In this document: in pieces, positions 8,476 through 40,126 of the stretch
Numbering within the stretch: the stretch's first letter is position 1
How the letters are laid out: each line of letters begins with the position of its first letter
Source: Candidatus Bacteroides merdigallinarum
GTDB taxonomy: Bacteria > Bacteroidota > Bacteroidia > Bacteroidales > Bacteroidaceae
DNA length: 64,000 nt
Assembly (NCBI GenBank): GCA_019116285.1
Contig: DXBX01000032.1
Location: forward strand, 21,191-85,190
Direction of reading: 5' to 3'
Translations under genes and position numbers: made by a program
The notes under the pieces: model-generated
Seen by the model: the letters and a program-made list of their open reading frames with translations, nothing else
Database searches by the model: none
What the model was told of the DNA's origin: nothing

Positions 8476-11310
8476 TCAGTCGCTGCTGGCTATCGGGAAG
8501 ATGGCGAGACAGTTTGTGATATGTCCCGATTGGGTATTACTACGGTGTTCGCCCCAAATATCTGTTTGCATATTGTAACGATTAATCTGCCCCGTACCAG
8601 GAATCCTTGCCTGTTCCAAATCAAAACTTAGGTTATTGGCTTTAGTTTCAGCATATTTGCCTGTTGTCCAAAAGAAACCGTATGTTCCATAATAGTCTGC
8701 TCTGAAATTGTAACCGGAACCGGCAATACGTATGCCAGACAAAGGAAAGAATAGGTAGCCTAATTCTGAGTCGAAATGAACTCCGATTTCATTACCGGTA
8801 AGAATAGGATTTCCATCGCGAAGTTCACCTGTTACTGTAGCATAATATCTTCCATCTCTGAGCAAGTCCTCATCCAATAATTGACCAAATGTTTGTTTAG
8901 GCGGCACCTTGAATCCGTAAGGGCAAGGATCATAGATGCTTTTGGTTACATCTGCTCTACTGCTTGTCCGGGTGCTTAATGATTCGGCAGCATTCCATAA
9001 GTAAGCGCTTTGTACTCTTCCGTTATCATCAAAATCATCATTTGTATTATATCTGTGTGGATTTTGTATCCAAGTATTGACGCCCTCCCAGCCTTGGCTC
9101 ATGGGGTTGGATGTACTCACCAAATACTGTCTTTGGGGGTCGTAAGAGAAAAGTTCTGCATCTACTGTAGTGCCACCGGAGATAGTAACGGGTCCCATGG
9201 GGTCTTTGCGTCCCCACTGGTACAAAGTATAGCTGCCACTGGTTGCGAGAGTGTGTCCGTTTTGTGTAACGTTAAACACACGTTCGTTAGTACTCTCATT
9301 AAGCAGGCGAAAGCGCAATTGAAGATTACGAGGAGCCCATGTCTTTGTGCCTCCTTCAACCCAGCCAAGTGGCTTTTTCAATACTCGGCGGGATTTGTTG
9401 TCCGTCCCTATGAGAGAAGCCGTAGGCATGTTGAGCTGTTCACCGCCGCACGTCACCCAGATGTGCCAGCTCCACATGATGCGATTTTGACTGTCGAATG
9501 CGGCAATTACAGCATTGCCCTCGGTGATGGTACCTTTGTACACTCGGAAGTGGATGTAATACTTCCCTTGTCTATCGTTGGTTTCTTTGGTAGCCATGTG
9601 TACCTCGGACACCAGTCCGTTCACGTCCTGCCACAATAATTCTGCTCGGACGGGGCGTTCGCCTGTTTGACCTGCATAGTAGTTGTTTGCTGTAATTTCT
9701 TTTCCTAAATAGTCCACGTAACCTTTGCTCAGCACACTGTTATTGAAATTGCCGCCACTTAAGGCGTTGCCATATACCATCGGAATCTCGTGGAAACCGG
9801 CGCGGTGTACCACATAACAATTGGCCGTACTACCGCCGTTATCTTCATTTACGATATTGCTAGGATGTGTATCAGTACCCCAGCCCAGTGTGTTGGCAAG
9901 GACACGCCGTGCCTCACCATTTATGTAGTATGATGCCTCAGATAAGTGGATTTTTTGTGTATGCTGTTCAGTCTGGTTGCCACTGGTGGTTATATTGGAA
10001 AATGCGGCACTGGCTGTAAGTCCATCATTTGAACTCCAAAGTCTGGTCCATTCAGTCGGGCCGGGTGCAGGTTCACCCGAGGCTACGACGTGTCTGTATT
10101 CTATAACGTATGGCAATGCCGTGCCGTCTTGTCGGGAGGTCACGTTAAAAGAAAGATCTGTGCCTTGATAGGAAAGATGTTCTGTGTTGCCGGTTACTGT
10201 CACATTGAATTCAGGTGCACTTTCCATCTGGAAGGAGAGTGTATAAGTGTAAGTGAATCCTGCTTCCCATTGCCGGGCTGCACCGCCGCTGGATCCGCCG
10301 ATAACTGCACTGAATGTCTTTTTTTCACTATTGTCCTTTTTCTCGAAGTCTATTTCCAGCGTGGCATTGTGTAGTAGTTCCTGTGGTAGCATTAGAAAAG
10401 CTTCCCCTGCTGGGGTAAGATTGACCTTGCTGCCATTGCCTACGTCAATTTTATCAAGAGATAAAGTAAAATTTTGTTTTACAGCAGCATCTGATTCGTC
10501 AACAATTAATTCCCGAACACTTCCATCCCCATTCAGTGTCGCCTTATTCTTTATATTCATTAGTCGTACCTCAGACACTGTGCCCGGGGTGACATCGCCT
10601 GCCACTACTATGCGGACAGCCGCCAAGGCATGTTTGAAATCGAGGCTTACTGTACCATTGCTAGTGCTTGCCTCGGCAGTGGCAAAGCAGAGGTCTTGCT
10701 GAGCGGCGAAATCGGTGGGCACCGTGTAGGTATAGATCGGCTCATCGGTGGAAGTGGTTGCGGGCAGTATCAGTCCGTTTGCGTTGTAGGGGGCGTAAGC
10801 ATAGAAGCCTACCTTCTGTCCGAGGCCGGGCAGATAATACGTCTGGTTATCGGCGGGGCTGTAGTTGTTCGATGTGCCGCTGCGTTTTACCTGGAGGTTG
10901 TACAGGAAATCCGGATTCCCCGTGGAGTTCAGTCCTCCCAGGTAGCCGAAGAGGCCGAAGTTGTTGTGAAAATCATTGATATCGTTTGTTGGGATTCCAC
11001 GCGTTTGCGGGGCAGATTGTTTTTTCTTGTTGTGTGCCACATCGGTGGTTGGTATGCCGAAGGAGCGCAGGTAGAGGGGTTTCCCGTCCAGTTGCCCCGC
11101 TTCGAACACATGCTTCGTGGCAGCGGGGCTTGTCTGCGAAGCATCGGCCCATTGTGCTTCGGGGGTTGATACGTTGAAAAGCAACCGTCCGTTGCCCGCT
11201 TGCCCATCCATCAAGGAATCGTCTTGGCAGGCGGCCAGACATAAGGTTGACAGTAGGACGGTCAGGCCTTTGCGGACAGATAGGCGATGTGATTGTTCGT
11301 TTGGTCTCAT
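8476..11310 (-). CDS. Large fimbrillin-family lipoprotein, probable fimbrial tip adhesin
   Basis: Exported lipoprotein of 944 residues. The signal peptide ends LSTLCLAAC, with the lipidated Cys at about 28. The N-terminal half resembles the Mfa_like_1 fimbrillin fold (AFLMLPQELLHNATLEIDF, then FTYTYTLSF). The C-terminal part contains NLQLRFRLLNES and SIYDPCPYGFKVPP, the signature of the Fibrobacter-type major paralogous (FISUMP) domain often found at the tip of Bacteroidales fimbriae. It is the last gene of the fimbrial operon, behind an internal terminator-like hairpin. That placement fits a low-copy tip protein. The reading frame is intact although three upstream locus genes are broken. Confidence 0.8.
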   Translation of the reverse strand: MRPNEQSHRLSVRKGLTVLLSTLCLAACQDDSLMDGQAGNGRLLFNVSTPEAQWADASQTSPAATKHVFEAGQLDGKPLYLRSFGIPTTDVAHNKKKQSAPQTRGIPTNDINDFHNNFGLFGYLGGLNSTGNPDFLYNLQVKRSGTSNNYSPADNQTYYLPGLGQKVGFYAYAPYNANGLILPATTSTDEPIYTYTVPTDFAAQQDLCFATAEASTSNGTVSLDFKHALAAVRIVVAGDVTPGTVSEVRLMNIKNKATLNGDGSVRELIVDESDAAVKQNFTLSLDKIDVGNGSKVNLTPAGEAFLMLPQELLHNATLEIDFEKKDNSEKKTFSAVIGGSSGGAARQWEAGFTYTYTLSFQMESAPEFNVTVTGNTEHLSYQGTDLSFNVTSRQDGTALPYVIEYRHVVASGEPAPGPTEWTRLWSSNDGLTASAAFSNITTSGNQTEQHTQKIHLSEASYYINGEARRVLANTLGWGTDTHPSNIVNEDNGGSTANCYVVHRAGFHEIPMVYGNALSGGNFNNSVLSKGYVDYLGKEITANNYYAGQTGERPVRAELLWQDVNGLVSEVHMATKETNDRQGKYYIHFRVYKGTITEGNAVIAAFDSQNRIMWSWHIWVTCGGEQLNMPTASLIGTDNKSRRVLKKPLGWVEGGTKTWAPRNLQLRFRLLNESTNERVFNVTQNGHTLATSGSYTLYQWGRKDPMGPVTISGGTTVDAELFSYDPQRQYLVSTSNPMSQGWEGVNTWIQNPHRYNTNDDFDDNGRVQSAYLWNAAESLSTRTSSRADVTKSIYDPCPYGFKVPPKQTFGQLLDEDLLRDGRYYATVTGELRDGNPILTGNEIGVHFDSELGYLFFPLSGIRIAGSGYNFRADYYGTYGFFWTTGKYAETKANNLSFDLEQARIPGTGQINRYNMQTDIWGEHRSNTQSGHITNCLAIFPIASSD

Positions 11311-11331
11311 TGTTTGTTTCGTTCAAATTAC

Positions 11332-11385
11332 AAAAAATAGATGGCTTCCCGCTGATGGCACTAATGCCTGTGCGGGGAGCCATCT
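11332..11385 (-). terminator. Internal terminator/attenuator between fimbrillin and tip gene
   Basis: On the minus strand AGATGGCTCCCCGC pairs with GCGGGAAGCCATCT (14 positions, one mismatch or wobble). The loop contains a further GGCA/TGCC hairpin and the stem is followed by ATTTTTTG. It lies 33 bp after the fimbrillin stop and 22 bp before the next ATG. It would lower tip-gene mRNA relative to the major subunit. Confidence 0.75.
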
Positions 11386-11417
11386 GAGATTTACTAGATA
11401 CCTATTAAAAACTGAAA

Positions 11418-12644
11418 TTACATGCTGGTATTGCCATCAAACCCGGGTTTTTGTGCATCATTCCATTTAGACACGGTTACGGAAAGTTTAATAGCATCAC
11501 CCAATACCGGTTTATTCGGATCTACAGGAACTTCGGGGTCTGTAGGTTTCGTTGGTTGATCAGGGTCTGTAGTACCGGCACCGTTGCTGAAGTCCAGCGT
11601 ATAGGTGTAGCAAGTGCCGGGTTGCCAGTTCTCATCAATGGGCACTGCGGTCCAAGCATATTTGCCTTTATTCTTCTCGTTGCCGGTACCAAGTACGGGA
11701 GGGAACATTTGCGTCCAGCCACTGTTTCCATCAGATTGTGAAATACGGCAAAGTACAGAGATATAGGCTCCGTTGACATCGGTCGAACCTGCATTACCAG
11801 GAGTTAATTTGGTAAGCTGTTGCGGCAGTACCATGAATGCATTGTTGTACTTGTTTGATTTGTCGTCCGCCGTTACATCCATAAGCGATTGGGCGGTACC
11901 ATTCAATACTACAGGAGTTAAAGATGTGCTTAGTCCCTTTGAAGGCAAAGCTTTGTAATCTCCATCCTTATTGGTCGTATTGTTTGTAACACTCCAAATG
12001 CTTTGAGCTAACGATGTACTTGCATCTGTGTTGGTTGATGTGGTGGGTAAAGTAAGGTCTGCAGTACTATTTACACCGTTAAGACGTACACCGAGTACTT
12101 CCACTTTAAGACTGGTGGATTTGTCATTCTTACCTTGGATTACCACTTTTGTGAAGGCGTGCTTGAAATTAACAGTCACGCCGCTAGTACCATTGGTCTT
12201 TTGATTCCCTGTTGCATAAGCTACCACCAAGTCTTTTTGAGCATTGGCTGTTGTCGCAGGCTTTACGCCGGTAATAGTTTGCGTGGTACCATTTATAGTT
12301 ACTGTACTGTTGGAAAGTGCATCATTGTAAGCGAAGAAATGCAAGGGCGTATTGTCACCCGGCCAAAAGTGCGTGGCAGCGCCATTGAAACTAGTTCCGC
12401 CATCCTTAGTCGTATAAGTGTCTTTCCATACAGGCGAAGCACCTTTAACAGTTTCTCCTTGCAGAGTCTCTACCTTGAACGACCCAAGGCTCTTAATGTC
12501 CACATCTGCCGCACGTGTCATGCTGTTGGTCAGCACATTGAAGCGGATGTCTTTCCCTTGATTGATTTCGATGGTTTCATCCTGTGCGCAGGATACGAAT
12601 GCCATTGTTGCAACGGCAGACAGATAAAAAATACTTTTTCTCAT
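11418..12644 (-). CDS. Fimbrillin-family major subunit (Mfa_like_1) lipoprotein
   Basis: Protein of 408 residues with a lipoprotein signal (MRKSIFYLSAVATMAFVSC, Cys19). A fimbrillin-like mature part follows, with the early NSMTRAAD segment where gingipain-type maturation occurs in Porphyromonas fimbrillins, FKHAFTKVVIQGKN, AFMVLPQQLTKLTP and the C-terminal CYTYTLDFSNG. A Pro-rich linker (DPDQPTKPTDPEVPVDPNKP) precedes the last strand, LSVTVSKWNDAQKP, a candidate donor strand. It is the probable shaft subunit, exported to the outer membrane and polymerised. It starts 46 bp after the disrupted DUF5119 gene. Confidence 0.85.
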   Translation of the reverse strand: MRKSIFYLSAVATMAFVSCAQDETIEINQGKDIRFNVLTNSMTRAADVDIKSLGSFKVETLQGETVKGASPVWKDTYTTKDGGTSFNGAATHFWPGDNTPLHFFAYNDALSNSTVTINGTTQTITGVKPATTANAQKDLVVAYATGNQKTNGTSGVTVNFKHAFTKVVIQGKNDKSTSLKVEVLGVRLNGVNSTADLTLPTTSTNTDASTSLAQSIWSVTNNTTNKDGDYKALPSKGLSTSLTPVVLNGTAQSLMDVTADDKSNKYNNAFMVLPQQLTKLTPGNAGSTDVNGAYISVLCRISQSDGNSGWTQMFPPVLGTGNEKNKGKYAWTAVPIDENWQPGTCYTYTLDFSNGAGTTDPDQPTKPTDPEVPVDPNKPVLGDAIKLSVTVSKWNDAQKPGFDGNTSM

Positions 12645-12689: not shown

Positions 12690-13627
12690 TTACATGGGTA
12701 AATCTACTTCCACATTGTCCCAGCCGTCCACACCGGCGTTCATGCCTCCTTCGTCGGTGACGGGAGCAGGCAGGGGGAGACCGTCAAGTTCCAGATGGAT
12801 GTTCCGAGGGTCGGGGGCATGGTTCACCTGGTCGGTCACGTCGTAGGTGTAATACCAGGAGCTGCCATCGTCCAACAGGATGTAGATGACAAATTTGTGG
12901 GGAAGGCCGGAGGCTGTCCTGTCGGGACAAAAGCCCCGGAAGCTACCGGTAACTTCTGATGAATTGTCGTGGCGGGCGGCAAACGGTACACAAACAGTCT
13001 CTTCGTTATAGGTTTCCGTTCCCACAAAGTATCCCCGGCTGAGTCCTGACAAGGAGCCGCTAATGGCCTTCACGTGCGTCAGGTTTTCGGCACCGGTGAT
13101 GCGGAAGGTGAAGTTCGTATGTACCTGCCGGGGAGTGAAAACGAGGGTTTGTTTCCCGGCCGACACATCCACGGTCAACTCTTCCCGGCATGCTGTCCAC
13201 AGGGAGTCCGGTTCCAGTCCGCCACTTTGCCCTTCTGTTCCTGAAGGCCGTGGAGGCTCTGCCGTCACCAGCACGTCCATGCCTTCCAAGAGGGAAGCAT
13301 CGCGGGTGTACACTTCGAAGGTGCTCCAGGTGTCTGTTCCCCGGTAGCGGTTGGCCGAGCCACCCGTGTTGAGGCAGAGTGCGTCATATGTGCCGGGCAA
13401 CAAGTCTACTTCACCACCTGTGTGATGGAAAGCAAAGCGTTGGGGTTGTCCGCCGCTTTGGGGAAAGAAGTACACCTCCATGAGCGAAGGTGTGGCATCG
13501 GGTGCCTGCTGCCAGTCGAACTCCACGTGCAGTGTCGCCGTATAGGGATGATCGTAGCACAGTTCCTTGTGTTCGCAAGCCGTGGCAGACAGCAAACTAT
13601 CCATTGTATGATCTTGTGGACGTTCAT
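12690..13627 (-). pseudogene. DUF5119-type fimbrial lipoprotein, frameshifted in the signal peptide
   Basis: The body (from CEHKELCYDH to the end) resembles DUF5119 lipoproteins encoded beside fimbrillins and may anchor or regulate the fimbria. The natural start is the ATG at 13627. It has a strong AGGAGG site, and its ATGA overlaps the stop of the preceding gene. From there the frame reads MNVHKIIQWIVC and runs out of register. Adding one T to the TTT at 13594-13596 would give MNVHKIIQWIVLLSATAC, a proper lipoprotein signal joined to the body. The only in-frame ATG (13604) leaves a nine-residue pre-Cys leader, too short for export. A one-base deletion or a homopolymer read error is the simplest reading. 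Confidence 0.75.
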
Positions 13628-14913
13628 CGTTGGCCTCCTTTCTCTTTAGCCCGATTATTATTGTTGCGTCCCAGCAGCCACACCAGCGATACTTCCGCCT
13701 TGGTGGGGCCGAACCAGCGTCGTTGCTTGGTGGCTTGCCACACATAGTGGCCGTCTTTGGGCAGATATTCTTGGTATTCGCCTCCCAGATAGCCCAGTCC
13801 GATGGAGAAATCAATGTTGAGCCTGCGTGCCACCGGCAGTGAATAGCCATATTCCAGGCCGACTCCCCAGCTCCAGCGGTTGCCGAGATAGCCGCGGCCG
13901 CCCCGTTAAATGTCATAGGTGAGCAGTTGGCCGTACACGCCGAGGTAATGGCCCTGAAGGGGCTTTATGGCCGCTTGGTGTCCGAAATACTTGCGTACAT
14001 TCAGTTCTCCGCCTTGGATACGCCAGTAGCGGTGGCGGTGGTCATTGCTCCACCAGGCATGCAGGTAGCTGCCGCCCAGCGTCCATCCCTTGCCCAGGGA
14101 AAACTCGATTCCCAAGTTGGGCACGAGTAGTGCATCATAGAGCATATTGGTCTTCAAGGCCCAGTAAGCGGAACGCTTCTGCCTGTCTGGGCAATCATTC
14201 TTGGCGGCGTTGTACGTCATCAAGGTCTCTCGGCCGGCAATGGTATCATGCGGAAGAACCGTATCTTGTCGCACGGGTTGGGGTACGGGTTCGACCGGTA
14301 TAGGGCGAGTCACGACGCATTGTATCTCCAGGGCAGAAGAGCGTAGTTCGGGGAAGAAATGTTCGGCCATGTAGTGCCAGACCCGTCCGCCTTGCAGCAT
14401 GCCCAACTGACGCTTGCGCCCGTCGACGATGCGTCCGTCGCGCCGGATCCATTCAGGCGTGTTGCGCAGAATCTCTAGTGCCGCGTCCCGATGGGGCATG
14501 TCACTCTCTTCCACCAGTTTCTCCAGGCCTTTCCAGTCCACACCCACGGATTGCACCTCATACCGCAGCCCGGACAATGCCGCCTGGCGGCTCATCCATC
14601 CGATGAGGCTCTCGGCACGCTTGCGCGCCAGGCGTTTGTTCATCACAGTCATGCCTTCCGGCGAGGCTGCCCCCACAATGCGCACCGGATGTACACGTTG
14701 CAGGGAGTCACCCGCCACTTGCCGCAGCTGTCCGGCGAATGCCTCCAGCTTACGTGCATTGTCGCGAAAAGAGGGGTCGAACGTGGAGTATCCTCGTTGG
14801 AAATACACCTTCAGACTCAGGGTGTCGGTATGCACGGCTTCTTGCGCCGAGACTTGCGACACCTGCACCAAAGCCGCCAGGGCGACCCATAGCAATTGGA
14901 CGTTTCGTTTCAT
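13624..14913 (-). pseudogene. DUF3575 outer-membrane fimbrial assembly protein with in-frame TAA
   Basis: The start at 14913 gives MKRNVQLLWVALAALVQV and a signal peptide. An OmpA-like periplasmic segment follows (VHPVRIVGAASPEG, NKRLARKRAESLIGWM), then the DUF3575 barrel (WALKTNMLYDALLVPNLGIE). At 13906-13908 the frame hits TAA after GQLLTYDI. The same frame then continues RGGRGYLGNRWSWGVGLEYG and on to a TGA at 13624-13626 that overlaps the next start as ATGA. Homologues are remembered with an acidic residue at this position, so GAA to TAA is the likely change. About 94 barrel codons are cut off. Readthrough cannot be excluded from sequence. Confidence 0.8.
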
Positions 14914-14919
14914 ACGCTT

Positions 14920-14950
14920 CAAAGTTATGCGAGTCCGGCCTAAGGGGAAA
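14920..14950 (-). promoter_or_regulatory. Probable promoter of the fimbrial operon
   Basis: The minus strand has TTTC (14947-14950), 19 bp, then TAACTTTG (14920-14927). The predicted transcription start falls at or within a few bases of the ATG at 14913, which implies a leaderless or nearly leaderless mRNA. The 21-bp array begins just upstream. Confidence 0.6.
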
Positions 14951-14972
14951 AGAAGCGGAAGGGGGCGGAAAA

Positions 14973-15110
14973 AGTTTCCAATTCCACGGGAAAAGTTCTC
15001 AATGCGCCTTGAATTCTTCATTTCCAGCCTGGAAATGTATATTTCCAGCCTAGAAATGTATATTTTCAGCCTAGAAATGTACATTTCCAGCCTGGAAATA
15101 GACTTTTCTC
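14973..15110. repeat. 21-bp palindromic array, copy A
   Basis: Four 15-bp palindromes of the form TTTCCAGCCTGGAAA lie at 15021, 15042, 15063 and 15084, exactly 21 bp apart. TGTATA or TGTACA separates them. Degenerate units (AAGTT...GGGAA type) extend to about 14973, and the right flank is TAGACTTTTCTCC. The same array occurs at 32970-33047 in the same orientation. No gene is seen in 14951-15226, whose remainder is a CCGG/TTTCCC-rich stretch. Confidence 0.95.
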
Positions 15111-15226
15111 CGTGTGTTGGCCGGTTTTTCCCGGTGATTTCCCGGTTTTTTCCCGCCTGACAGACATTTTTTGTCCGCAGCTTAAACCAGAACTCAGTAA
15201 AGTAGATGAATTTTTAGTTTATCGTT

Positions 15227-16114
15227 TCACAAGTGGCCTGTCGCCTGGAGAATCCTGCCTGCCTTGACCGCCTTCGTACCCCGTATCTCCGAGGGTGTCA
15301 TGCCGAAATAATTCTTGCAGAACGAAGTGAAGTAAGACATGGATGAGAAACCATATTCGGTGGCGATGGTCATCAGGTCCTTGTTGGTGGCGCGCAGTTC
15401 TTGGCGTACCGATTCTGCCCGGCGTGCAATGAGCCACTCGCGGGCGGAGCATGAGAATTCCGCCTTGAAGCGCCGCTGGAAGTTGCGCAGCGACATGTTT
15501 GCCTGCGAGGCAAATTCGTTGACATCATTCACGTGCCGGTAATTCTCGAACACAAACTGCTTGAAGGCATTGTTCTGATGCAGGATGGCGGCAAAGAGTC
15601 CGTGCAGTTCTTCGGCCTTGTGGTAGAGCCTTAACAGCAAGAGCAGTTCCTGCCGCTTCAGTTCCTGATAGTGGATGCAGTACAGCTCTTCGTCCAGTGC
15701 ATCCAGCACGGAGGAAAATACCCGTTTGATAGCCGGATAGGCGGACAACTGGGCCTTACGGGGGTGATGTAGCTCCGGCTGTTTATCCGCCATCTCCCGC
15801 CTCAGATCCTGCAGGTCGTAGATGTGGCATAGCTTGACGTGAAAAGGCAGGTTGCACGTGAGCATCACGGCGGAGGTCGTGGCATGCCCCCAGAACGATT
15901 CATTTTGCGACAGGAATATGATATTTCCCTGCGGGATGTGCCTGGACGAATCTCATTCTTCCACTTCAAGCAAGCCTTCCGCCACATAGAGCAAGATGCC
16001 GGCTTTCTGATTAATATAGGGTAATACTTCCCCTTCGTTCAACTGCAAGCGGTGGAATATGGAAGATTCTTCGTTGGCATAATGTAAACAATGAAGATTC
16101 TTATATTGCAGCAT
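15227..16114 (-). pseudogene. AraC-family regulator of the fimbrial locus, interrupted by TGA
   Basis: The C-terminal half is an intact AraC/XylS DNA-binding domain: NEFASQANMSLRNFQRRFKA, then TIATEYGFSSMSYFTSFCKN and FGMTPSEIR. The N-terminal sensor half starts at MLQYKNLHCLHYANEE (16114) and runs to GLLEVEE. An in-frame TGA (15953-15955) interrupts it before the frame continues DSSRHIPQGNIIFLSQNESF and onward to the DNA-binding part. No frame change is needed, so a single substitution explains the break. A later start at 15868 could yield a truncated 213-residue protein with the DNA-binding domain. Its position 314 bp upstream of the fimbrial operon suggests it was the local regulator. Confidence 0.8.
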
Positions 16115-16147
16115 TGTTTGTTTTGTTTTGTTTTTGTTTTCCGGCTG

Positions 16148-16155
16148 CAAAATTA
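16148..16155 (-). promoter_or_regulatory. -7 element of the AraC-family gene (TAATTTTG)
   Basis: TAATTTTG on the minus strand. Transcription would start near 16141, which rules out the upstream ATG at 16150 and favours 16114 as the start codon. No clear -33. Confidence 0.5.
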
Positions 16156-16220
16156 CAGATTATCCGCAAAGGAGAATTTCATTGATGCGCCAACAAATTT
16201 CTATTGTGCGCCAATTTTAA

Positions 16221-17351
16221 TTATTCGACAAACATCAGGTCGCTGAGGATGTCGTCCGAGACGAAAATGCCTTGTTCGGTCAGGCGGAGGATGCCCTCTT
16301 GCTCTGTGAGTTTTCCGCTTCTCAGATGGGGGGCGGCCATGTCCCGCAGGTAGTGCAGGCGGTCGGTGCCGAAGTCGTGCAGGATTTTGTCCGTCGAGAT
16401 GCCCCACATGGTGCGCAATCCGGTCATGACATATTCATTGTAGCGGGTGTCGGAAGACAGCACCTCTTTCTCATAGGGGCGTTGGCCGTTTTCCAGGCCG
16501 GTGATGTACGCATCCAGCGAAGCGAGGTTCCACTCGCGGCTTTGGGTGTCGAAGGAGTGGGCAGAGGGGCCGCATCCCAGGTAGGGGACGCCTTGCCAAT
16601 AGGAGGTGTTATGGCGGGCATGGTATCCGGGCAGGCAGAAGTTGGAAATCTCATAGTGTACGTATCCTGCCTGTCGGAGCGTGTGGGTAAGCCGGGTGAA
16701 GAAGCGCAGGCTGAGGTCCTCGTCCACCTCGTGCACCCGATGGACTTGCAGCAATCGGTGGAGGGGAGTTCCTTCTTCGTAGGTCAGGTGGTAGGCGGAG
16801 ATGTGTTCGGGGCGGAGTCGGAGGGCTTCTTCCAGGTCGCGTTGCCATTTCTCTTCCGTCTCGCCTGGCAGGCCGTAGATGAGGTCGATGCTGAGATTGC
16901 GGAAGCCGGCTTGGCGGCATCGCTCTACGGCTTCGATAGCTTGGCGGGCGGAGTGCCGGCGATGGAGCAGGCGCAGCGTCTCATCGTTGAAGGTCTGTAT
17001 GCCCATGCTGATGCGGTTGAAGGGCAGGCGGCGCAGGGTGTCTACATAGGCTTCGGTGAGGTCATCGGGATTGGCTTCGAGCGTGATTTCCACGGCATTC
17101 TCCAGTCCGTACACCTCTTGCAGGGTTTGGAAGATTTCGGCAAAGTCCTTTTCCTCCAGTTGCGAGGGGGTGCCCCCTCCGAAATAGACGGTATCTATCT
17201 GCGCTCCCTGCAGGTAGTCGCGGCGCATCCGCAGCTCCTTGCACAGGGCTTGGACATAGCGTCGCTTCAAGTCCTCGCGGGTGGTGGAGTAGAAGTCGCA
17301 ATAGATGCAGCGGGTCTTGCAGAATGGGATGTGCAGATAGATACCGGCCAT
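16221..17351 (-). CDS. hemW: Radical SAM heme chaperone HemW
   Basis: The protein has 376 residues. The HemN-like radical SAM motif CKTRCIYC places the cluster ligands at Cys11, Cys15 and Cys18. YFGGGTPSQL, TLEANPDDL, FNRISMGIQTF and GCGPSAHSF are typical of HemW rather than true HemN. HemW binds heme and is thought to pass it to membrane cytochromes; older annotations call it coproporphyrinogen III oxidase. It starts 33 bp after the GH51 gene on the same strand, so the two may be co-transcribed. The spacer 16115-16220 holds only the AraC-gene promoter. Confidence 0.93.
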   Translation of the reverse strand: MAGIYLHIPFCKTRCIYCDFYSTTREDLKRRYVQALCKELRMRRDYLQGAQIDTVYFGGGTPSQLEEKDFAEIFQTLQEVYGLENAVEITLEANPDDLTEAYVDTLRRLPFNRISMGIQTFNDETLRLLHRRHSARQAIEAVERCRQAGFRNLSIDLIYGLPGETEEKWQRDLEEALRLRPEHISAYHLTYEEGTPLHRLLQVHRVHEVDEDLSLRFFTRLTHTLRQAGYVHYEISNFCLPGYHARHNTSYWQGVPYLGCGPSAHSFDTQSREWNLASLDAYITGLENGQRPYEKEVLSSDTRYNEYVMTGLRTMWGISTDKILHDFGTDRLHYLRDMAAPHLRSGKLTEQEGILRLTEQGIFVSDDILSDLMFVE

Positions 17352-17383
17352 GTTATACTTATATACAAACGTTCTTATTGTTT

Positions 17384-18934
17384 TTATTGGAGAGTCAGGG
17401 TCACGATGGCCTTGGCCGGGAGGGTGACGTACAACTTGCCCCGGCTGATGCGTGCCTTGTCGAACGCTTTCAGCCGGATCTTGTCGGGTTGTTCGAAGGT
17501 GTTGTGGTCGTCTATCCGGTCGGCGGTCAGGATTTCACCCTGTACGCTCTTCGCTTTCTGTTCGTCGAGAGGAATCTCCACTTCGCACGGTTGCGCCAGG
17601 TCGATGTTGGCCAGCGAGATGTGTACCGTCCCTTCGGCATTGCGCGAGGCCGTGGCGCTGAGCGTCGGTACGATGCGGTCATCGCGGACGACACGGCGCG
17701 TGCATTGGATATCCATCGGGATGAAGGTGGCATCCTGGTGTACCTTGTACATCTTGAAGACGTAATAGGTGGGCGTCAGCACCATCTTGTCTTCCCGGGT
17801 GAGTATCATGGATTGCAAGACGTTGGCTATCTGTGCGATATTGGCCATGCGGATGCGGTCGGTGTATTTGTGGAAGACGTTGAGCGTCAGGGCGGCCACA
17901 AACGCATCGCGCAGGGTGTTCTGCTGGAAGAGGTGTCCGGGGATGGTGCCGGGCTCCTGATCCCACCAGGTGCCCCATTCGTCTACCATCAGCCCCACAT
18001 GCTTGGCCGGGTCATAGCGATCCATGATGCTGATATGGCGTTGTATCACGTCTTCTATTTCCAGGCACTTGCCCAATGTCCAATAGTAGTCTTCGTCCGT
18101 GAATTGCGTGGCCGACCCCTTGCTGCCTTCCCATCCTGCCACGGTGTAGTAGTGCAGGGAGAGGCCGTTCATGCGGGTGCCTACGTTTTTCATCAGGACT
18201 TCCGTCCAGTTGTAGTCATAGTCGCTGGCGCCGCTGGCTATCTTGAAGAGGTTGTTGCCGTTGTAGTTGCGGCAATAGGTGGAGTAGCGCCGGTAGAGGT
18301 CGGCGTAATACTCCGGGCGCATGCTGCCGCCACATCCCCAGCTCTCGTTGCCTACGCCGAAGAAGTGGACTTTCCAGGGCTTCTCGCGTCCGTTTTGTTT
18401 ACGGAGTTTGGCCATCGGCCCGTCTGCTGCGGTCATGTATTCCACCCATTTGGCCATCTCTTCCACCGAGCCGCTTCCCACGTTTCCACTGACGTAGGGT
18501 TCGCATCCCAGCAATTCACACAGGTTCAGGAATTCATGGGTGCCGAAGCTGTTGTCTTCCACGGTGCCTCCCCAGTTGTTGTTCACCATGCGCGGGCGTT
18601 GGCTCCGCGGGCCGATGCCGTCCATCCAATGATATTCGTCGGCAAAGCAACCGCCCGGCCAGCGCAGGTTGGGGATGGACAAATCCTTCAATGCGCCCAA
18701 TACGTCGTTGCGATAGCCTTGCGTGTGGGGGATGGAGGAGTCTTCGCCTACCCAGAGGCCTCCGTAGATGCACGTGCCCAGGTGTTCGGCAAACTGGCCG
18801 TAGATGTGTCGGCTGATGAGGTTTTTCCCTTCGTCGGGATGCAGGGTGAGGGTTGCTTTCTCTTGCGCCTGCAAGGTCAGCGGCCCCATTGCGAGGGCGA
18901 TGAGTGCCCAAATCTTAATGCTTTTCAGTTTCAT
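17384..18934 (-). CDS. GH51 alpha-L-arabinofuranosidase, secreted
   Basis: Removes terminal alpha-L-arabinofuranose from arabinan or arabinoxylan side chains. From the ATG at 18934 a signal peptide ([19 protein letters not shown], cut near TLQAQ) leads a protein of about 516 residues. Its (beta/alpha)8 barrel has [13 protein letters not shown] and the general acid Glu197 in [10 protein letters not shown]. The nucleophile is Glu319 in [11 protein letters not shown]. The C-terminal beta domain runs from about 430. An upstream in-frame ATG (19030) lies beyond the predicted promoter and is rejected. The gene stands alone, without SusC/D or other glycan genes. Confidence 0.93.
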
Positions 18935-18965
18935 CGTAAAAATCGGTATTTGAAGTTTGTCGGTG

Positions 18966-18997
18966 CAAAGGTAAGGGAAATCGAAACATTGGGCAAG
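18966..18997 (-). promoter_or_regulatory. Promoter of the GH51 gene (CTTG-N20-TACCTTTG)
   Basis: The minus strand has CTTG at 18994-18997 and TACCTTTG at 18966-18973, 32 bp before the chosen ATG. Confidence 0.8.
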
Positions 18998-19063
18998 TCT
19001 TTGCGCAACCTTGCCCGCATCTTTGCGCAACTTTGTGCGTATCTTTGCGCACTTTTGTGCACA
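18998..19063. repeat. 22-bp tandem array with TTGCGCAA cores
   Basis: Three units of 22 bp (18998, 19020, 19042) each begin TCTTTGCGCA and the first two contain the palindrome TTGCGCAA. A partial fourth starts at 19064. The array lies between two divergent promoters and touches the -33 of the GH51 promoter. Confidence 0.85.
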
Positions 19064-19145
19064 CCTTTGCAGCCGATGTCGGATAGCCTGTTTATCCGAC
19101 GAATAATCCCATATGGTGCATTATAGGAATAAAATTTGAAAGTGG

Positions 19146-32918: not shown

Positions 32919-33060
32919 AAAAGTTTTCAATGTCATTAGAAAACTTTCCGATGCCGCTAGAAAAGTCTATTTCCAGGCTGGAAATGTGTATTTCTAGGTT
33001 GGAAATGTACATTTCTAGGCTGGAAATGTATATTTCTAGGCTGGAAATAGAGTTTTCTCC
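32919..33060. repeat. 21-bp palindromic array, copy B
   Basis: Four palindromes of TTTCTAGGCTGGAAA type lie at 32970, 32991, 33012 and 33033, exactly 21 bp apart. TGTGTA, TGTACA and TGTATA separate them. Degenerate units (AAGTTTTC...AGAA and AACTTTCC...AGAA) extend left to about 32925. The right flank TAGAGTTTTCTCC matches copy A. It occupies the yhhQ-queC spacer. Confidence 0.95.
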
Positions 33061-37020: not shown

Positions 37021-37183
37021 ACCCCACGCGTGGGGTATCGCAAGGGGTCACGCGTGGGGTACTTTCAAGGGTATCTGATACTGTTGACGATGGGTATCTG
37101 ATACTGTTGACGATGGGTATCTGATACTGTTGATGAAGGGTATCTGATACCCTTGACGAAGGGTCACCGTGACTGTTCATCCA
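37021..37183. repeat. ACGCGT palindromes followed by a 23-bp tandem array
   Basis: A perfect 16-bp palindrome ACCCCACGCGTGGGGT (37021-37036) is echoed near 37045-37060. Five 23-bp units then follow at 37069, 37092, 37115, 37138 and 37161. The first four contain the palindrome GTATCTGATAC; the last is diverged. The array fills most of the spacer 37010-37209. There are no unique spacers between units, so it is not a CRISPR. Confidence 0.92.
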
Positions 37184-40018: not shown

Positions 40019-40126
40019 TACGGCTGTGACGTTGTAACACTCTTACTGTGATGATGTAACATCCGTACTGTGACGATGTAACATCCGTACTGTGATGATG
40101 TAACATCCGTACTGTGACATACTGTG
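40019..40126. repeat. 22-bp tandem array after xusA
   Basis: Three near-identical 22-bp units start at 40044, 40066 and 40088 (TACTGTGAYGATGTAACATC). A diverged unit precedes (40019-40043) and a partial one follows from 40110. GATGTAACATC inside each unit is nearly palindromic. Confidence 0.92.

What the first reader, a model, noticed from the sequence alone, without database searches (positions are those of the whole stretch)
12690..16114. Fimbrial locus with three independent inactivating lesions upstream of intact pilin genes
Seen directly: the AraC-type gene has an in-frame TGA (15953-15955), the DUF3575 gene an in-frame TAA (13906-13908), and the DUF5119 gene is out of frame with its well-positioned ATGA-coupled start unless one T is added at 13594-13596. 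In each case the protein-like sequence continues past the lesion, while the fimbrillin and tip genes downstream stay open. Either the locus is decaying and the subunits are orphaned or used with another assembly set, or the strain switches this pilus off reversibly.
Basis: partly seen in the sequence, partly recalled or inferred. Interest (0 to 1): 0.7.

Follow-up and report, generated by a model that had tools for sequence, protein, structure and literature searches.

The report
Decaying pilus operon, unbroken alleles elsewhere
A draft bacterial genome, likely of the Bacteroides group, carries a predicted pilus operon in which the regulator gene and the predicted outer-membrane and anchor genes are each broken while near-identical unbroken versions exist in public sequence data, so this is most likely ordinary loss of one pilus in a single strain, although errors in the assembled sequence cannot be ruled out.

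Summary
The three lesions are in the sequence, but one was misdescribed. The AraC-type regulator has a TGA at 15953-15955 and the DUF3575 gene a TAA at 13906-13908; conserved protein resumes in frame after each. The DUF5119 break is not one lost base: against a 99% identical allele its signal-peptide region is 13 nt short. Database proteins 97-100% identical to the pieces run unbroken through all three sites, so the lesions are apparently not fixed in the species. Of nine DUF3575 copies in the genome only this one contains a stop. I read it as strain-level decay of the regulator, outer-membrane and anchor half of a type V-like pilus operon. The open pilin genes are weak evidence of kept function: three random lesions would all fall upstream 8% of the time. 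Reversible switching is unsupported: no repeat tract at any lesion and no convincing invertible promoter. Local assembly or strain-mixing error stays possible, since the genome is an 81%-complete draft in 93 contigs and neither reads nor conspecific DNA were available. Anchor-gene loss by a stop codon is known in Porphyromonas gingivalis.

The parts
15227..16114 (-). AraC-type regulator gene, broken by an in-frame TGA after 53 codons; the HTH domain lies entirely after the stop
   Evidence: Stop. HTH_18 and HTH_AraC in the second piece. Unbroken 295-aa protein P0121:
15953..15955 (-). in-frame TGA in the AraC-type gene
16175..16214 (-). two 19-nt direct repeats (79% alike) 21 bp apart upstream of the AraC-type gene; candidate (inferred) AraC binding sites, followed by a Bacteroides-type -7 motif at 16148-16155 (motif recalled, from no call)
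   Evidence: repeats; position of the motif:
13639..14913 (-). DUF3575 gene (predicted OmpA-like periplasmic domain plus C-terminal beta barrel), broken by an in-frame TAA that removes the last strands of the predicted barrel
   Evidence: the stop falls on a column invariant in a 47-sequence alignment
13906..13908 (-). in-frame TAA in the DUF3575 gene
12690..13627 (-). DUF5119 lipoprotein gene (predicted Mfa2/FimB-like pilus anchor); its coupled start is out of frame with the lipobox and body because the signal-peptide region is a net 13 nt short
11418..12644 (-). fimbrillin (Mfa_like_1), 408 aa, open; predicted stalk subunit
11325..11390 (-). strong hairpin followed by a T run between the two pilin genes; predicted (inferred) partial terminator setting the stalk-to-tip ratio
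   Evidence: -28.6 kcal/mol, z = -5.4, 0 of 200 shuffles as stable. The consensus terminator scan did not list it
8476..11310 (-). large Mfa_like_1 protein, 944 aa, open; predicted tip adhesin

Best explanation
This is a predicted type V-like pilus operon, likely of a Bacteroides-group bacterium, that is likely decaying in this one strain: its regulator gene and its predicted outer-membrane and anchor genes are broken, while near-identical unbroken versions of all three exist in public protein data. Shown: the three lesions, the unbroken versions, and other DUF3575 genes without stops in the same genome. Inferred: loss of the regulator would leave the operon poorly expressed, the truncated DUF3575 barrel would not insert in the outer membrane, and the DUF5119 anchor would lack a usable lipoprotein signal. 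Once one gene was lost, the others would drift free of selection. The pilin genes simply have not yet been hit.
For: Lesions. Continued homology across each. Unbroken versions, in clusters of 31, 18 and 37 member sequences. Only 1 of 9 DUF3575 copies in the genome has an internal stop. The window otherwise tiles into long frames (45 listed); of 10 further frames scanned, 7 gave Pfam matches, 3 gave none, and no domain was divided between neighbours. Twelve amino-acid differences from the unbroken versions lie nearer the lesions than random placement gives (P = 5e-5, post hoc), and three of them change residues kept in 119 of 119, 110 of 113 and 77 of 100 homologues, as expected under relaxed constraint. 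The DUF5119 model matches Bacteroides adhesins and, at rank 8, the Mfa2 anchor 5nfi.
Against: Several of the 12 differences do not look like damage: at one the window has the common residue (106 of 119 against 5), at one both are common (58 against 42 of 118), and at two the window residue is the better represented (7 against 0 of 100; 1 against 0 of 3). In AraC only 2 or 3 homologues inform each site (all). The clustering also fits local assembly trouble or mosaic strains. No reads, no synonymous sites and no conspecific DNA were available: among 158 genus genomes, own included, the best-scoring match outside the own genome is 74% over about 545 nt and no row exceeds 76%.
Confidence: 0.62

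Rival explanations
1. Assembly or consensus artefact: the draft contig merges reads of several strains, or low-quality reads, at two tracts (15731-15955 and 13458-14043), and no cell carries all three lesions together.
For: Draft of 80.6% completeness in 93 contigs. Differences concentrate at the lesions. The database representatives that match best are the unbroken versions.
Against: Two nonsense codons and a 13-nt shortfall, with no homopolymer of 5 or more near any site, are not the typical error pattern (inference). The other 8 DUF3575 copies have no stop, and the frames checked show no general frameshift load. If the database version is ancestral, 9 of the 12 changes are minimally C-to-T or G-to-A on the coding strand, the usual mutation bias (my reading of the codons).
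Confidence: 0.25
2. The locus is only partly disabled: the pilins are still made and exported, and without the anchor the cell would make longer, loosely held or shed pili, as in P. gingivalis strains lacking FimB.
For: P. gingivalis with a fimB nonsense mutation makes long fimbriae, and FimB acts as terminator (PMC3436787, one passage read). Pilin genes open. DUF5119 resembles the Mfa2 fold.
Against: Here the regulator and an outer-membrane partner are also broken. The role of DUF3575 in pilus assembly is not established by any search, nor is the anchor role of DUF5119.
Confidence: 0.1
3. Reversible phase switching of the pilus by the lesions.
For: Surface structures of Bacteroidales are often phase variable (general knowledge; search listing and abstract starts only). 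A 12-nt inverted pair, 92% complementary, spans the AraC promoter.
Against: Nonsense codons and a 13-nt shortfall are not reversible by slippage; no homopolymer of 5 or more near the sites and no tandem repeat listed there. The arms of the 12-nt pair lie in coding sequence on both sides, so inversion would scramble two genes; the other pairs belong to a dispersed 21-bp array or are distant and short.
Confidence: 0.02

Closest known systems
P. gingivalis fim locus with fimB nonsense mutation
   Same: A Bacteroidales type V pilus locus in which the anchor/length-control gene is naturally broken while the stalk gene is intact (PMC3436787 for strains 33277 and 381, one passage read; PMC12785474 FimB-positive, passage read)
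   Different: There one accessory gene is broken and pili are made; here regulator, outer-membrane protein and anchor-like gene are all broken, and pilus production is unknown
Natural nonsense mutations in the P. gingivalis mfa cluster (PMC8313007)
   Same: Strain-to-strain loss of pilus genes by possible nonsense mutations (passages read)
   Different: There the stalk gene mfa1 was hit in three strains; here the stalk gene is open
Shigella type 1 fimbriae inactivation (PMC4374849)
   Same: A fimbrial operon inactivated by distinct mutations (abstract read)
   Different: A different kind of pilus in a pathogen, lost repeatedly across lineages; here one draft genome, host and lifestyle unknown
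DUF3575-DUF5119 loci of genus relatives
   Same: 27 of 31 loci searched, the window's own among them, have a DUF5119 relative beside DUF3575
   Different: None of the 30 loci taken has a stop inside the matched part, though that query ended at the window's stop; in the rest of that cut list three rows have stops (G006, G013, G103). The window copy has three lesions across the operon

Membership tests
Type V (Bacteroidales) pilus operon | fimbrillin-family stalk and tip subunits | tested here: met
   Mfa_like_1 in both, E 3e-21 and 3e-22. No PDB sequence match for either
Type V (Bacteroidales) pilus operon | accessory lipoprotein with a fimbrillin-superfamily fold like Mfa2/FimB | tested here: met
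   Model of the unbroken version (pLDDT 91) matches 5cag (TMq 0.63), several Bacteroides adhesins and, at rank 8, Mfa2 5nfi (TMq 0.51, E 4e-9); FimA 6jzk follows at TMq 0.41. The lipobox cysteine is invariant in 53 sequences. In the window copy the signal is broken
Type V (Bacteroidales) pilus operon | that lipoprotein acts as the anchor | not testable with these tools
   the fold does not by itself tell anchor from other subunits
Type V (Bacteroidales) pilus operon | lipidated, protease-processed subunits joined by donor-strand exchange (recalled) | not testable with these tools
   needs biochemistry
Pseudogene locus | unbroken homologous version exists and homology continues past each lesion | tested here: met
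Pseudogene locus | lesions present in the organism, not only in the assembly | not testable with these tools
   no reads available
Pseudogene locus | relaxed selection on the broken genes | tested here: inconclusive
   changes cluster at lesions and three hit conserved sites, but others do not; only protein-level alleles were available
Phase-variable locus | slippery repeat at the lesion | tested here: not met
   no homopolymer of 5 or more near any lesion; no tandem repeat listed there
Phase-variable locus | invertible promoter | tested here: not met
   in 14800-16400 only one 12-nt pair spans the AraC promoter at promoter-like distance, with both arms in coding genes

The most novel reading that the evidence does not exclude
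The operon is a mosaic: recombination brought two decayed tracts (about 0.2 and 0.6 kb) carrying all three lesions into an otherwise functional operon. The species would then keep working and disabled forms of this pilus in circulation, a population-level rather than clonal on/off polymorphism.
Probability: 0.08. Interest if true: 0.4.

Novelty: new member of a known kind. Interest (0 to 1): 0.17.

Why it matters
It is a worked example of likely strain-level loss of one pilus locus in a bacterium with several DUF3575 loci, and it corrects a one-base frameshift call to a 13-nt shortfall. It also shows why open pilin genes downstream of broken accessory genes should not be read as kept function without a test.

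Tried and rejected
Stop-codon recoding: rejected, since 16 window genes counted (of 45 listed frames) end in TAA (9), TGA (6) and TAG (1), so neither TAA nor TGA is a spare sense codon. Reversible switch: rejected as above. PDB sequence search found nothing for the two pilins. AraC beside DUF3575 in relatives: 4 of 31 loci including the window's own, inconclusive because most flanks were about 1.5 kb. Literature on DUF3575: 2 papers, one opened and found to list it only in expression tables, the other not opened. No paper held both Bacteroides and DUF5119. Rates of stops in the genus: no listed row has a stop inside, but both lists are cut and the window's own lesions would not show in them. 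Of six stretches taken only three were looked at.

Rows dropped: from the clustering test, one difference in the repeat-derived leader upstream of the DUF3575 start and the two residues next to the DUF5119 break. In one search the homologues were 3 of the 4 others found for AraC, the 119 others listed of 1101 for DUF3575, and 100 of the 108 others for DUF5119.

Full report
Setting. The window lies in G000:C11:21191-85190 of a 2.73-Mb draft in 93 contigs, 80.6% complete and 2.8% contaminated. The group is inferred to be Bacteroides-like: the one control genome that matched was Bacteroides ihuae, and the one outside hit was an uncultured Parabacteroides.

The operon, on the minus strand, runs: AraC-type regulator, DUF3575, DUF5119, fimbrillin (408 aa), hairpin, large fimbrillin-like protein (944 aa). 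Pfam finds HTH_18, DUF3575, DUF5119 and twice Mfa_like_1. A DUF5119 relative sits beside DUF3575 in 27 of 31 loci searched, the window's own included. The hairpin between the pilin genes is strong (-28.6 kcal/mol, z = -5.4) and precedes a T run; I infer a partial terminator that sets the stalk-to-tip ratio. The consensus terminator scan did not list it.

Lesions. TGA at 15953-15955 and TAA at 13906-13908 are in frame. The AraC pieces before and after the stop match one database protein, P0121, at 53 of 53 and 236 of 241 residues. The DUF3575 pieces match P0001 at 333 of 335 and 86 of 89. The stop falls on a column invariant in 47 homologues. In the model of the unbroken version (mean pLDDT 78, pTM 0.43) the strands from about residue 397 onward would be missing. 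Its best structural matches are weak (none at E 0.001 or better): OmpA-like periplasmic domains first, the OmpW barrel lower down. The DUF5119 body matches P0126 at 299 of 302, but from its coupled ATG the window has 32 nt to the conserved lipobox stretch where P0126 implies 45, a 13-nt shortfall after ten shared residues. An in-frame ATG at 13602-13604 would give only nine residues before the lipobox cysteine, too short for a normal lipoprotein signal (sequence; inference).

Unbroken versions. P0001, P0121 and P0126 stand for clusters of 31, 18 and 37 member sequences on 16, 2 and 1 contigs, source ENA. That they are conspecific is inferred from 97-100% identity. Clusters are at 90% identity, so I cannot say how many members carry lesions, and the three need not come from one strain.

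Is the draft generally bad? Of nine DUF3575 copies in the genome only the window's has a stop. The window otherwise tiles into long, nearly non-overlapping frames (45 listed; at least one of them, 17324-19126, lies opposite what looks like the real gene). Of ten further frames scanned, seven gave Pfam matches, three gave none, and no domain was divided between neighbours. Most other frames were not scanned. This argues against a general error load, not against a local one.

Pattern of change. Twelve amino-acid differences between window pieces and unbroken versions lie closer to the lesions than in random placement (P = 5e-5 in 200,000 draws; a post hoc test). Three hit residues kept in 119 of 119, 110 of 113 and 77 of 100 homologues. 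Against this, at one site the window has the common residue (106 against 5 of 119), at one both are common (58 against 42 of 118), and at two the window residue is the better represented (7 against 0 of 100; 1 against 0 of 3). So the pattern supports relaxed constraint only in part, and equally suggests two divergent tracts, by recombination or by strain mixing in the assembly.

Pilins. Their being open is weak evidence of kept function: with 3,104 nt upstream and 4,062 nt downstream coding, three random lesions would all fall upstream with P = 0.08. dN/dS could not be computed, because no conspecific DNA was found.

Switching. No homopolymer of five or more lies near any lesion and no tandem repeat is listed there. 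In 14800-16400 the inverted pairs are those of a 21-bp array, and distant short pairs; one of 12 nt (92%) with 300 nt between its arms spans the AraC promoter, but the arms are inside the AraC-type gene and the upstream gene.

Mechanism. Shown: lesions, unbroken versions, and other DUF3575 genes without stops in the genome, one beside a DUF5119 gene on C5, one near an Mfa2-family gene on C73, two on C72 (frames read for C5, C73 and one of the two C72 places). Inferred: the regulator is lost, the barrel is truncated, and the anchor lacks export and lipidation. DUF5119 as anchor rests on fold likeness to Bacteroides adhesins (5cag, TMq 0.63) and, at rank 8, Mfa2 (5nfi, TMq 0.51), and on a PDB profile match to 5cag (E 2e-25); the fold alone does not prove the role. 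In P. gingivalis, loss of the anchor FimB by a nonsense mutation gives long fimbriae, not none (PMC3436787, one passage), so anchor loss alone need not abolish pili; loss of the regulator and the outer-membrane partner makes a silent operon more likely here.

Verdict. Ordinary strain-level decay of one of several such loci is the best reading (0.62). A local assembly or strain-mixing artefact is the main rival (0.25).

Noticed in passing
window 15019-15099 and 32956-33058; 66 exact sites across the genome: Arrays of about four 21-bp near-palindromic units dispersed through the genome: 66 exact 17-bp cores against 0 for the reversed control. Only 5 of 156 genus genomes, own included, have any (66, 13, 3, 1, 1), and one other genome has one control match. 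The five arrays looked at share short flanking ends in part, so this looks like a species-restricted small mobile or REP-like element. One literature search gave no description (one unrelated listing).
   Followed up: partly
window 14914-15084: The database version of the DUF3575 protein (P0001) starts inside the repeat array, giving a repeated leader peptide. The likely true start is the ATG at 14913, so this is probably a gene-calling error.
   Followed up: partly
window 37067-37177 and 40024-40118: Two further tandem arrays with 23-bp and 22-bp units, not examined.
   Followed up: no
window 16148-16214: Two 19-nt direct repeats 21 bp apart and a TAATTTTG motif upstream of the broken AraC-type gene, possibly a self-regulation site.
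   Followed up: no
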